64,000 nucleotides of DNA from Diphasiastrum complanatum (lineage: Eukaryota; Streptophyta; Lycopodiopsida; Lycopodiales; Lycopodiaceae): assembly GCA_029204225.1 (NCBI GenBank), contig CM055094.1, positions 12,807,314-12,871,313 on the forward strand, written 5' to 3'. The translations under genes and the position numbers were made by a program. Within the stretch, counting starts at the first letter, position 1. Each line of letters begins with the position of its first letter. The notes beneath the pieces were generated by a model. It ran no database searches. It was not told the origin of the DNA and saw nothing but the letters and a program-made list of their open reading frames with translations. Below, piece by piece: positions 15,346 through 23,649 of the stretch.

Positions 15346-15381
15346 ATATATATATATATATATATATATATATATATATAT
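15346..15381. repeat. (TA)n tract, first link of the element chain
   Basis: The TA run immediately precedes the CATAG of element N1. It is the first of six TA tracts that separate or flank five consecutive elements up to 23575. Confidence 0.95.
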
Positions 15382-16036
15382 CATAGATCTAGCGGTACCA
15401 GGATCCGCAGATTCAGGTACCGCGGATCCATACTGATCCGCGGTACCATAATATATAATATTTTTTTTTTTAAATTAAAAAAAAAAATTAAGTGGGCAAT
15501 ATGGGTATCAGCTTGAAGCTGTTGACGAGAGCAGTGCATTTATGCAGGTTGCCGGTTTTGACGAGAGCAAACAGCCAAAGGACCAAGGGGATGCAAAACA
15601 CCAAAATGTGTGTTTTCGCTCAGGACCCCCCAGACCCCCCGTTTCTCGGGGGGCTACCGCCCCCCGAACCCCCCAAGACTTGCTGCTATATAGAAACTGT
15701 AATCTAGCCATCTCATAACCATCATGGTCTCATAGTAGACCCTATACTAACAACCGTGCTCAGTAATGGCTTCTCCTCATAACGGGGGCCTTACAAATCT
15801 GAGCTCACGGTTAACTAGTGACTACTAAACTGAGAGGTGCATTATTTAGTTGTCTAACATATTTTGAAGCTGAAAGCACCGGCAACCTGCATAAATGCAC
15901 TGCTCTCGTCAGAGCTTCAAGCTGATTCCCATATTGCCCACTAAATTTAAAAAAAACAAAAATATTAAAAAATGGTGCTGCCCTGGTACCGCGGATTTTT
16001 GGGTGGCACCATAATGGTGGTACCACGTGCCACTAT
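15382..16036 (+). mobile_element. Non-autonomous TA-bounded element N1 (about 655 bp)
   Basis: It begins CATAGATCTAGCGGTACC and ends GTGCCACTAT, with family-type palindromic ends. The interior is unrelated to the transposase. It has a long imperfect inverted repeat: arm 1 at 15491-15556 (agtgggcaatatgggtatca...) and arm 2 at 15877-15942 (...gattcccatattgcccact). Between the arms is a GC-rich stretch with ccccccgaacccccc. There is no ORF. It could be mobilised by a related transposase; the origin of the interior is unknown. Confidence 0.8.
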
Positions 16037-16057
16037 TATATATATATATATATATAT
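16037..16057. repeat. (TA)n spacer between N1 and N2
   Basis: About 10 TA units form the entire spacer between two complete elements. Confidence 0.9.
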
Positions 16058-16822
16058 CATAGATCCAGTGGTACCAGGATCCGCGGATCCCAGTACCGCG
16101 GATCCATACTGGTACCGCGGATCCATACTGATCCGCGATACCATAACATATAATTTTTTTTTTAATTTTTTAAAAAAATAAAATAAAATCAAGTGGGTAA
16201 TATGGGTATCAGCTTGAAGTTGTTGACAAGAGCAGTGCATTTATACAGGTTGCCGGTTTTGACGAGAGTGAACAGCCAAAGGACCAAGGGGATGCAAAAC
16301 ACCAAAAAGTGTGTTTTCGCTCAAGGAGTCAAACCCCAAATCATGAAGAGGTCGTACATGAAGAGGCTCTGCCCCCCAAACCCCCTGCCGAGGGGCTATC
16401 GCCCCCCGAACCCCCTAAGACTTGCTGCTATATAGAAACTGTAATCTAGCCATCTCATAACCATCATGGTCTCACAGTAGACCCTATACTAACAATCGTG
16501 CTCAGTAATGGCTTCTCCTCATAACGGGCGCCTTACAGATCTGAGCTCACGGTTAACTAGTGACTACTAAACTCAGAGGTGCGTTATTTAGTTGTCTAAC
16601 ACAATTTGTAGCTGAAAGCACCGGCAACCTGCATAAATGCACTGCTCTCGTCAAGAGCTTCAAGCTGATACCCATATTGCCCAGGAATTTTTTTTTTCTT
16701 TTTAAAAAATTAATTTTAAAAAAAAATTTAAAAAATGGTGCCGCCCTGGTACCGCGGATTTTTGGGCGGCACCATAATGGCGGTACCACCATTATGGTAC
16801 CGCGGTACCATGTGCCACTATG
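16058..16822 (+). mobile_element. Non-autonomous TA-bounded element N2 (765 bp)
   Basis: Same family and orientation as N1. The start is CATAGATCCAGTGGTACC and the end is GTGCCACTATG. Inverted-repeat arms lie at 16192-16257 and about 16619-16683. The interior matches N1 closely (aaaccatcatggtctcaca block, tcataacgggcgccttac) and carries an extra segment (caaatcatgaagaggtcgta) that N3 also has. No coding capacity. Confidence 0.82.
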
Positions 16823-16866
16823 ATATATATATATATATATATATATATATATATATATATATATAT
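16823..16866. repeat. (TA)n spacer between N2 and the chimeric element
   Basis: About 22 TA units. Confidence 0.95.
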
Positions 16867-16983
16867 CATAGGTCCCGCGGTACCGTACCGGTCTTGTGGT
16901 ACCAAAAAAAATAAAAAATTTATTTATTTTTACGAAAATAACACGGGAAAAAAATTAATTTTTTTTTTTATTATGGTACCGCC

Positions 16984-17341
16984 TGTTACGAGCTCGTAAC
17001 CAGTGCCGAACCCTAGGGAACACAGATAAGTCAGATACCACAGTCAGGGTCGTGTCCAGCGTACATGACCAACAGGGCAAGACAGTGTGAGTAGTGTGCC
17101 CCAGCACGGTCCATAGCCATGGCGGGCCTAACACAGCCTAGGGACCCTGTCAGCAGGATAGGGCCTCCAGTTGGGTCCCGACGTGCAGTCGGCCACGTCA
17201 GTGCCACGTGGCCGACACTTGGCAGTAGCATGCTACCAGTCCTCACACTGGGCTAGGAGGGGCTTACTCTATATCAGGGAGTAGGCAAGGTTGGGTGGAT
17301 CAGTTAGTGTTTGCCCTACTGTGGTGTTAGGAACTATTACA
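16984..17341 (+). repeat. LTR of a truncated retrotransposon
   Basis: The block starts TGTTACGAGC and ends TATTACA, directly before the primer-binding site TGGTATCAGAGC, as a 5' LTR should. It is 358 bp long. No partner LTR exists in the window. Confidence 0.75.
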
Positions 17342-21915: not shown

Positions 21916-22537
21916 CCCATGCCAGTTCCAGACAAGCAGAGATATCGGCTACGAGAGTCAGCTCGGGGCCCTGAGTTGTCTCCAGAGCATTCGTCTGAGT
22001 CAGAGCCAGAGCATTGATTGTAGCTCTGTTGTTTTAGTTTCAGTAGTTTGTCTCTAGCAGACGGTCTACCATTGTACTCAGATGATTTTTCACATTATAT
22101 ACAGTGTTTGGCCTACATTATTTGCTGCACATTGTGCGTATGTCGCTTTGTACATGTGATGCTTTATTTTATGTCGAATTCTATGTGCGTGTGTGAATCC
22201 TATTTTCATTTAATTTCGTTTGAAGTGAATGCTAGTTGAACATATATGCACCTACATCATGAGCACAACAATCACCCCTACACCCCAAACGACATTTCAT
22301 AAACACATGTAATACATCTGCATTTAAAAAAATTACAGACATTGCATCTTACATGACCAGGCTCGCGTTGCACAAAAAACAACTATGTATATATTCAACC
22401 GTTGTATCAAGATAACATCACATATACTGTCATTTTTTTAAGCAGCCATCTAGTTATTTGCTGCATCATAAACTGCCGAAAATTACATAGCAACAGTCCA
22501 CCACATACGGCTGGACCTTATCTATTCAAAACATCCC

Positions 22538-22903
22538 TCACTGATCCTCCATCGACTCCTCGCCCTCGTCTGGTGCATTGTTTTGTCGCTCTTGCTCTGC
22601 CTCCCGGTTAGCCCGAGCTGTCTCCTGGTTAGCCCGACGTCTGGCCGCCCTTTCCCTGACCATGATGAGCTGCCGTCGTGTGAAATTCATTCTGATCTGC
22701 TTATCTAGATCCAGCTCGACAGCGGGGACAGGATCCACAGCAGGGGCGGGTGGCTCCGGTTCCAGATTTCTTTGTCGAGTCTGTCGCAGCATCTCTCGGA
22801 TATCTGCCTTTTGCTTCCGATGTCTCTCGTTGTGCCTTCGGATATCTTCCTCAAGCTTCCTCCTGGCTTCGCCCTCGGGATTTGGTGGTATGTGCTCTGC
22901 CAT
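22538..22903 (-). CDS. Accessory charged-helix protein of the TA-bounded element (copy B)
   Basis: This 121-codon ORF starts at the ATG at 22903, matching the copy-A start, and ends at TGA 22538-22540. The frame stays open upstream, but only the sequence from MAEHIPPNPEGEARR is conserved. It has the same charged helix, PAPAVDPVPAVELDLD linker and basic helix (FTRRQLIMVRERAARRRANQ) as copy A. Its complete C terminus is acidic (NNAPDEGEESMEDQ). It is convergent with the transposase, whose stop is about 620 bp away. The frame is intact although the transposase beside it is broken. Function unknown; a DNA-binding or regulatory partner of the transposase is a guess from charge pattern and position. 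Confidence 0.62.
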   Translation of the reverse strand: MAEHIPPNPEGEARRKLEEDIRRHNERHRKQKADIREMLRQTRQRNLEPEPPAPAVDPVPAVELDLDKQIRMNFTRRQLIMVRERAARRRANQETARANREAEQERQNNAPDEGEESMEDQ

Positions 22904-23119
22904 CTCGATCGACCTTCTCCTCACAGCACCCTGGTCCTTGAACACCCTCTCACAGCACCCTGGCTCTCAAACAGCCTCTCACAGCCTATCACCGGCTCTC
23001 GCTTGCTCTGTCACTGTCTATCACTAGCTCTCTCACAGCCTCTGAAAATGCCGACCACAATGGCATTGTGAGTGCCTATTTATCCCCACAGCCTGATCGG
23101 CCATGTGGATCCCCATCAT

Positions 23120-23300
23120 CCATCCATGTGCCTTTGTACCTGCCCCCATGTGATGCTCCCCCCTGTGTTGGTCTCCCATTGGGCCCATTGTCTGCTCACC
23201 CACAATGCCCATGTGCCTCTGTACTTGCCCCCATGTGATGCTACCCCCCTGTGTTGGTCTCCCATTGGCCCCTCGGTCTGCTCACTCGCAATGCCCATGT
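23120..23300 (-). repeat. 85-bp tandem repeats upstream of the accessory ORF (copy B)
   Basis: At least two units, about 86-87 bp apart, show caatgccc at 23203 and 23289 on the + strand. Their complement carries the same ordered blocks as the copy-A repeats. Conservation of the array in both copies argues for a role in the element. Confidence 0.8.
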
Positions 23301-23539
23301 GCCACTGCAACAGTCCCCTGCATCATGTACTGTACCCTCTTTTTTTACACCCAGAACCCCCTTTTTTTACTTTTTTTTGTCCTTTTTTGGTAGTTAATAT
23401 CCAAAAAAAAATTATTAAAAAAATATTAAATAATAAAAAAAATATAAAAAATGGTACCGCCCTGGTACCGCGGATCCCAGGGCGGTACCACTGATATGGT
23501 ACCGGCAGTACCATACCAGTGGTACCACGAGGTACTATG

Positions 23540-23649
23540 ATATATATATATATATATATATATATATATATATGTATATAAAGAGAGAGAGAGAGAGAGA
23601 GAGAGAGAGAGAGAGAGAGAGAGAGAGAGAGAGAGAGAGAGAGAGAAAG
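23540..23649. repeat. (TA)n followed by (GA)n before the YY1 acceptor
   Basis: The TA tract (23540-23578) ends the element chain. A 68-bp GA tract (about 23581-23648) follows and stops 37 bp before the terminal YY1 exon. Confidence 0.95.

What the first reader, a model, noticed from the sequence alone, without database searches (positions are those of the whole stretch)
15346..23578. Five consecutive DNA elements chained only by (TA)n tracts
N1, N2, the chimeric element, N3 and copy B follow one another. Each starts CATAG and ends CTATG or CTAT, and the only DNA between them is a TA microsatellite of about 20-45 bp. Copy A elsewhere in the intron is also in (TA)n. This implies strong targeting to (TA)n, with each insertion leaving or generating TA sequence on both sides so that new members can land beside old ones. 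Serial tandem build-up of this kind is unusual for hAT-like elements, which normally make 8-bp target duplications.
Basis: partly seen in the sequence, partly recalled or inferred. Interest (0 to 1): 0.85.

Follow-up and report, generated by a model that had tools for sequence, protein, structure and literature searches.

The report
hAT transposons chained through TA microsatellites
A family of "jumping genes" of the hAT type, probably in a plant, inserts again and again into simple TA repeats, nearly always in the same register, so that copies pile up end to end, a habit described so far for an unrelated transposon group.

Summary
Five elements (15382-23539) follow one another with only 21-44 bp of pure TA between them; a sixth copy (7705-12151, minus) also sits in TA. 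Together they fill 76% of a 16.4-kb intron of a YY1-like zinc-finger gene.

The window's own genome (1.74 Gb) was searched. The family is hAT: off-TA copies show exact 8-bp target duplications (11 read; several others gave none) and a T2/A7 target bias. Of 632 exact left ends, 338 are preceded by ATATATAT and 2 by TATATATA; of 618 right ends, 361 are followed by ATATATAT and 0 by TATATATA: the register that the 8-bp rule predicts. The excess is roughly 600-fold, yet 34 of 91 sampled left ends lie outside TA.

Chaining is widespread: 40 of 151 sampled ends have another family end within 110 bp, in both orientations. N1-N3 form a clade in 0 of 200 bootstrap trees (no branch strongly supported), so separate insertions are likely. 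The "chimeric" element keeps only a real left end.

TA-chained arrays are published for Mutator-like elements; I found none for hAT. Whether TA tracts pre-exist or grow after insertion is open.

The parts
7140..7283 (+). exon of the host gene (C2H2 zinc fingers, YY1-like); intron starts at 7284
   Evidence: Pfam zf-C2H2; best of 63 PDB matches is 1ubd, YY1, 2.3e-19; splice site by reading
7666..7704 (.). TA tract (39 bp) beside copy A
7705..12151 (-). copy A: hAT element, 4447 bp; relative to ~6.25-kb copies it lacks a middle-to-3' stretch; keeps the DUF659 part of the transposase
   Evidence: DUF659 1.3e-11; alignment to L046, L055, L057
12152..12163 (.). TA tract (12 bp) on the other side of copy A
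15345..15381 (.). TA tract (37 bp) before N1
15382..16036 (+). N1: non-autonomous copy, 655 bp, CATAG...CTAT, 72-bp internal inverted repeat
   Evidence: best matches on other contigs
16037..16057 (.). TA tract (21 bp) N1/N2
16058..16822 (+). N2: non-autonomous copy, 765 bp
16823..16866 (.). TA tract (44 bp) N2/CH
16867..18810 (+). CH: family left end (about 16867-16983) followed by the 5' part of an LTR retrotransposon; right end family-like only in its last 7-8 bases
16984..17341 (+). 5' LTR (TGTTACGAGC...ATTACA) inside CH, followed by TGGTATCAGAGCC (primer-binding-site-like, recalled) and frames that look like gag (no Pfam match above cut-off)
   Evidence: same LTR 3' end beside TA in L085
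18811..18854 (.). TA tract (44 bp) CH/N3
18855..19506 (+). N3: non-autonomous copy, 652 bp, left part of the internal inverted repeat deleted
19507..19541 (.). TA tract (35 bp) N3/B
19542..23539 (+). B: hAT element, 3998 bp, lacks most of the 5' transposase frame, keeps the hAT dimerisation part
   Evidence: Dimer_Tnp_hAT 7.5e-9; alignment to L046
23540..23573 (.). TA tract (34 bp) after B, then GTATATAA and (AG)n
23686..24246 (+). next coding part of the YY1-like gene, inferred; intron 7284-23685 (16,402 bp), 12,461 bp of it (76%) in the six copies
   Evidence: and by reading; the zinc finger is weak in Pfam (zf-C2H2 E 0.21) and outside the PDB match

Best explanation
The elements belong to one family of hAT cut-and-paste transposons: a ~6.25-kb form, deletion derivatives such as A and B, and short non-autonomous N copies. 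The family makes 8-bp target duplications and prefers targets with T at position 2 and A at position 7. (AT)n offers such a target at every second base, and the family uses it several hundred times more than chance. An insertion duplicates ATATATAT, so both sides of the new copy keep at least four AT units, each again a good target; the next copy can land beside it in either orientation. Repeated single insertions, plus slippage of the TA tracts, built the chain in this intron. Shown: hAT transposase domains, 8-bp duplications off TA, the TA register on both ends, arrays at many sampled sites. Strongly supported: separate insertion of N1, N2 and N3. Inferred: that the transposase itself picks the TA site; that tract lengths come from slippage; that CH lost its right half by a deletion between short matches (CACTATG) in the retrotransposon and in the old right end.
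For: hAT transposase: DUF659 8e-39 in a 711-aa open frame of a 6254-bp copy; Dimer_Tnp_hAT 7.5e-9 in B. 8-bp duplications: exact in 6 of the 12 off-TA left ends among the 20 8-kb loci (L039, L045, L046, L049, L053, L055), 7 of 8 bases in L041, none in 5; exact in L006 and L008 (read) and in three pairs read (L062/L154, L066/L156, L086/L177). Target bias in 30 unique off-TA left flanks (not all with a confirmed duplication): T2 18 of 30 (p 8e-4), A7 21 of 30 (p 7e-5), both 15 of 30. Register, whole genome: left ends 338 ATATATAT to 2 TATATATA; right ends 361 to 0; the two 8-mers are equally common in window background, 25 to 28. Arrays: 22 of 91 sampled left ends and 18 of 60 sampled right ends have a family end within 110 bp, against 1.7% per 110 bp in background (some junctions are seen from both sides). 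Separate insertions: N1-N3 a clade in 0 of 200 bootstrap trees; N1 is 92% identical to a copy on C16 but 80% to N2. Copies in or beside TA (L042, L057) and off TA (L046, L055) are 94.6-97.2% identical.
Against: Five of the 12 off-TA left ends gave no duplication (L043, L044, L048, L050, L054: right end out of range, lost or changed, or start inside another copy), and the pair L080/L172 has different flanks. In the N tree no inner branch reached the tool's strong-support mark, the well-supported branches alone do not rule out one origin of N1-N3, and most rows were chosen as best matches to N1. No empty site was seen, so TA as the pre-existing target is not shown. L157 has 34 bp of TA where the adjoining DNA resembles the family's own interior, which has no TA there; TA may have grown after insertion. 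The register alone does not exclude transfer of elements together with their TA flanks by recombination, since a founder's register would be inherited. All five copies of the array lie in one orientation (two-sided p about 0.06), as local duplication would predict.
Confidence: 0.85

Rival explanations
1. Insertion did not need a long TA tract: elements enter short ATATAT-like sites, and the tracts grow afterwards (slippage or repair), as reported for maize TAFT elements. This is compatible with most of the best explanation.
For: PMC5907723 (Discussion) says that maize empty sites had 6-8 bp of TA that expanded after insertion. PMC4486113: empty sites averaged 9 TA repeats, occupied flanks in ecotypes about 15 on each side. 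Here, flanks with 8 bp or more of TA have a median of 25 bp (n = 82); L157 has TA where a related sequence has none (by eye).
Against: 34 of 91 sampled left ends have no TA tract, so growth would have to start only at some sites. No empty site was available to measure this.
Confidence: 0.4
2. Elements spread as TA-element-TA units by homologous recombination between TA tracts (for example through circles), not by direct transposase insertion into TA. This was proposed for SaTar Mutator-like arrays.
For: Explains how elements keep TA on both sides and chain; model in PMC5907723.
Against: Off-TA copies of the same subfamily carry clean 8-bp duplications with a T2/A7 bias, and the TA register is the one that bias predicts. 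Under recombination the register would be that of a founder, right only half the time by luck.
Confidence: 0.1
3. The block arose by local tandem duplication through unequal exchange between TA tracts.
For: All five copies share one orientation; N1, N2 and N3 are the same subtype; no branch of the N tree is strongly supported.
Against: N1-N3 form a clade in 0 of 200 bootstrap trees; N1 falls with copies on C16, C5 and C9 (support 93/95, just under the strong mark). N1's best matches elsewhere (92%) exceed N2 (80%). The five copies differ in length and content, and mixed orientations are normal in other arrays.
Confidence: 0.07
4. The adjacency is an assembly artefact: TA-ended pieces joined wrongly at TA tracts.
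For: TA microsatellites are hard to assemble; read data were not available.
Against: Coding parts that read as one gene lie on both sides of the block (the downstream part only by reading). Chaining is frequent on contigs of about 80-100 Mb, while off-TA copies on the same contigs have intact 8-bp duplications.
Confidence: 0.04

Closest known systems
SaTar elements (guayule, rice, sorghum, citrus), PMC5907723
   Same: Arrays of elements joined by microsatellites, mainly (TA)n; families with copies both in microsatellites and elsewhere with normal target duplications; mixed families in one array.
   Different: SaTars are Mutator-like (10-bp duplications in guayule). Here the transposase is hAT, duplications are 8 bp, and the TA register is all but fixed; the SaTar authors found many flanks inconsistent with cut-and-paste, and no nesting.
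Ac-mMITE-1/2 (pineapple), PMC8449440
   Same: Strong (TA)n preference; 46.1% of full-length copies in clusters linked by microsatellites.
   Different: Mutator-like, 9/10-bp duplications, no autonomous partner found.
MuTAnT (Medicago), PMC4486113; Micron (rice) and TAFT (maize) as cited there and in PMC5907723
   Same: Insert into TA microsatellites; MuTAnT has a putative autonomous copy.
   Different: Mutator-like; 9-bp duplications for MuTAnT.
hAT elements with TA-containing targets: TcBuster (nnnTAnnn, PMC3499496), Hydra hATm-3 (a TATATATA duplication shown as an example, PMC8721813)
   Same: hAT superfamily, 8-bp duplications, TA in the target.
   Different: No microsatellite targeting or arrays in the passages I saw; the Hydra example is in the other register.

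Membership tests
hAT superfamily | hAT transposase domains | tested here: met
   Dimer_Tnp_hAT 7.5e-9 in B; DUF659 8e-39 in L046, where the dimerisation match is 0.002, below the curated cut-off
hAT superfamily | 8-bp target site duplication | tested here: met
   11 exact cases off TA plus one 7 of 8; 5 of the 12 off-TA left ends and the pair L080/L172 gave none
hAT superfamily | target bias nTnnnnAn (consensus recalled) | tested here: met
   T2 18/30, A7 21/30 in off-TA left flanks
hAT superfamily | short terminal inverted repeats, A at 2 and G at 5 (recalled) | tested here: met
   CATAG at both ends, then imperfect GGTACC-rich repeats
hAT superfamily | catalytic DDE residues and activity | not tested
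   no structure or assay; phmmer against PDB found nothing up to E 0.1 for the 711-aa frame
SaTar / Micron-type microsatellite-targeted elements | flanked by (TA)n and chained in arrays | tested here: met
SaTar / Micron-type microsatellite-targeted elements | Mutator-like origin with 9-10 bp duplications | tested here: not met
   8-bp duplications and hAT transposase
SaTar / Micron-type microsatellite-targeted elements | no element in an array interrupted by another | tested here: not met
   L018 and L109 begin inside other family copies (by eye); CH is broken by an LTR retrotransposon

The most novel reading that the evidence does not exclude
A hAT transposase has evolved an intrinsic preference, several hundred-fold, for one register of (AT)n. 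Each insertion copies its own target, making self-renewing landing pads, which other families (CATAGTTGC..., CAGACATGAGGGTC...) share. Microsatellite-chained transposon arrays would thus have evolved independently in a second superfamily, by plain cut-and-paste.
Probability: 0.6. Interest if true: 0.62.

Novelty: new variant of a known kind. Interest (0 to 1): 0.52.

Why it matters
For Mutator-like elements, microsatellite-chained arrays were put down by some authors to an unknown extra pathway, because target duplications are hard to read inside a repeat and many flanks looked inconsistent with cut-and-paste. This family gives a readable case: its off-TA copies reveal the target rule, and that rule predicts the dinucleotide register seen at 699 of 701 TA-flanked exact ends. 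It suggests that ordinary cut-and-paste can build such arrays, and that TA tracts act as renewable landing sites inside genes; here six copies make up three quarters of a 16-kb intron.

Tried and rejected
Local duplication: unlikely for N1 against N2/N3, not excluded for N2 against N3. The block [N2+CH] as a copy of [N3+B]: not supported, because the left ends of CH and B are 67.7% identical over 62 columns (first 17 bases identical), while N2 and N3 are 88.9% over 619. CH as a full element with its own right end: not supported. L085 as an empty site: it looked as if TA had appeared inside the retrotransposon, but its flank is the end of the LTR, so it says nothing. Known RNA family at the gathering score: none in 5000-26000. 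Left-end pattern in viral and prokaryote collections: 0. Head-to-tail counts by gapped pattern: not possible, patterns with N are limited to 35 places. Empty sites (RESites): none found; no copy spanning both sides of a TA insertion was seen among the fetched loci, and the genome was not searched for one. A count for the B-type left end did not complete. The TA-free internal N search did not complete. Rows dropped: of the 100 listed left ends 91 were read; nine were not (the window's own N3, one cut two bases short in L096, one more on C3, six on C4). From 34 off-TA flanks four were dropped for the target logo (L018 and one in L114 lie inside family copies; L081 and L113 repeat L023 and L112). 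In the N tree, 9 of 13 candidate loci passed the length filter (L045, L033, L035, L036 did not).
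Full report
WHAT IS THERE. In order: N1 (655 bp), N2 (765), CH (1944), N3 (652), B (3998), all in the plus direction, separated by 21, 44, 44 and 35 bp of pure TA. Copy A (4447 bp, minus direction) lies 3.2 kb upstream in its own TA tract (39 and 12 bp). The window holds 12 perfect TA runs of 12 bp or more, 8 of them at ends of these six copies; an order-2 Markov model gives a mean of 0.02 such runs (50 simulations). The six copies lie in one inferred intron of 16,402 bp (7284-23685) of a YY1-like C2H2 gene and make up 76% of it. 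The downstream exon is read by eye; its zinc finger is weak in Pfam.

ANATOMY. The ends share CATAG and then many GGTACC motifs: 34 of the window's 39 GGTACC lie in the 12 terminal 150-bp stretches. A carries DUF659 and B a hAT dimerisation domain. Compared with ~6.25-kb copies elsewhere, A lacks a middle-to-3' stretch and B most of the 5' transposase frame. N1 and N2 have an internal inverted repeat of about 70 bp or more (N3 has lost its left part); N1 folds back strongly (z -15.5 against 20 shuffles). CH has a true left end, then an LTR (16984-17341), a primer-binding-site-like stretch and frames that look like gag. Its right end does not resemble family right ends except for CACTATG. I infer that an LTR element entered a family copy and a deletion between short matches removed the rest.

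THE GENOME. The window's own assembly (G000, 1,744,706,496 bp) could be searched. An exact 24-base left end occurs 632 times and an exact 19-base right end 618 times; the reversed patterns occur 0 times. These are exact matches to one subtype; the B-type left end was not counted.

TARGET DUPLICATIONS. Copies outside TA show what TA hides. Among the 20 loci of 8 kb, 12 left ends are off TA: 6 have an exact 8-bp duplication beside CATAG and CTATG, one matches in 7 of 8 bases and 5 gave none. Two more exact cases are L006 and L008 (read). Three more come from pairing left flanks with right flanks by eye: L062/L154, L066/L156, L086/L177. One such pair, L080/L172, does not match. So the boundaries are exact and the duplication is 8 bp, as in hAT elements.

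TARGET RULE AND REGISTER. In 30 unique off-TA left flanks, position 2 of the 8 bp is T in 18 and position 7 is A in 21, the hAT rule nTnnnnAn (recalled from the literature). ATATATAT obeys it; TATATATA does not. In the whole genome 338 left ends are preceded by ATATATAT and 2 by TATATATA; 361 right ends are followed by ATATATAT and 0 by TATATATA. Window background counts of the two words are 25 and 28. Background ATATATAT is 65 in 75,722 positions, a small sample, which makes the left-end excess about 620-fold. The register follows from an 8-bp duplication plus the target rule. It would also be kept if elements moved together with their TA flanks, so it is strong support, not proof.

HOW MANY LIE IN TA. 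Of 91 left flanks read (of 100 listed, of 632), 49 abut TA in this register, 1 in the other, 7 have a TA tract within 40 bp and 34 do not. Of 60 right flanks (of 618), 33 abut TA in this register, 0 in the other, 4 are near and 23 do not by this rule; several of the 23 have 4-6 bp of TA before another element. TA flanks of 8 bp or more have a median of 25 bp. Similar ~6-kb copies (94.6-97.2% identical) occur in or beside TA (L042, L057) and off TA (L046, L055), so these sites are not used by clearly different subtypes.

CHAINS. Another family end lies within 110 bp in 22 of 91 left flanks (13 tail, 9 head; three of the heads come from one place, L114) and 18 of 60 right flanks (10 tail, 8 head); background gives 1.7%. 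Some junctions are seen from both sides (L151/L152, L075/L166). These ends lie on C1-C4; arrays were also seen in loci on C9 and C16. Both orientations are common, so the uniform orientation in the window (two-sided p about 0.06) is probably chance. A further 6 of 91 and 9 of 60 have an end that looks like another family (CATAGTTG, CATAGTCG, CAGACATGAG); the last kind, with TAT before it, has 326 exact ends in the genome. Nesting does occur (L018, L109).

SEPARATE INSERTIONS. N1's best match is on C16 (92%), N2 is at 80%. In a tree of 12 N copies N1-N3 form one clade in 0 of 200 bootstrap trees; N1 falls with copies on C16, C5 and C9 (support 93/95). But no inner branch reaches the tool's strong-support mark, the strong branches alone do not rule out one origin, L002-L008 were picked as best matches to N1, and N3's best matches include N2. 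On checking I therefore raised the odds of local duplication from 0.05 to 0.07.

LITERATURE. I saw: PMC4486113 (first two of four parts), PMC5907723 (abstract, passages, first part of the Discussion), and passages of PMC8449440, PMC8721813, PMC3499496, PMC8227079, PMC12550479 and PMC7385995. TA-targeted Mutator-like elements and their chained arrays are described there. Seven searches of the open library, of which I saw at most the 20 listed titles and abstract starts each, showed no paper on hAT elements that target TA microsatellites or are chained by them; subscription papers are mostly not held.

OPEN. No empty site was seen, so it is not known whether the TA tract was there first or grew afterwards. 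L157 has 34 bp of TA beside DNA that resembles (by eye) the interior of copy B, which has no TA there; this fits later growth but also other histories.

VERDICT. A real and frequent feature: a hAT family with strong, register-exact use of TA microsatellites, which most likely builds arrays by repeated insertion. It is a new variant of a known kind.

Noticed in passing
L129, L149, L153, L160, L012, L059, L073, L088 (flanks of family ends): A second, GC-rich repeat family ending CAGACATGAGGGTCCGGGCC or similar abuts the same TA tracts; 326 exact ends preceded by TAT in the genome. Its type and target duplication were not worked out.
   Followed up: partly
L155, L174, L101, L013, L136, L162: Further ends starting CATAGTTG, CATAGTCG or similar sit across TA or next to the family: perhaps related hAT families in mixed arrays.
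   Followed up: no
L005 around 1520 and 2221: An N copy in TA at the centre of a longer AT-rich palindrome; hairpin-forming TA may be a favoured target.
   Followed up: no
L061 (G000:C2:30860552-30860583) and G000:C3499:7092-7123: The only two exact left ends in the opposite TA register.
   Followed up: no
L157: 34 bp of TA beside sequence like the interior of copy B, where copy B has no TA.
   Followed up: no
7904-8148 and 23124-23307: 84-86-bp tandem repeats near the 3' part of A and B; repeated alignments in other copies suggest that the number varies.
   Followed up: no
L085: The 3' end of the same LTR as in CH directly abuts a TA tract beside a family copy.
   Followed up: partly
23582-23650: A 69-bp (AG)n tract about 35 bp upstream of the inferred exon start at 23686, soon after the TA tract of B.
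   Followed up: no
2788-3300: A G-rich degenerate minisatellite region (overlapping unit calls of 12-72 bp).
   Followed up: no
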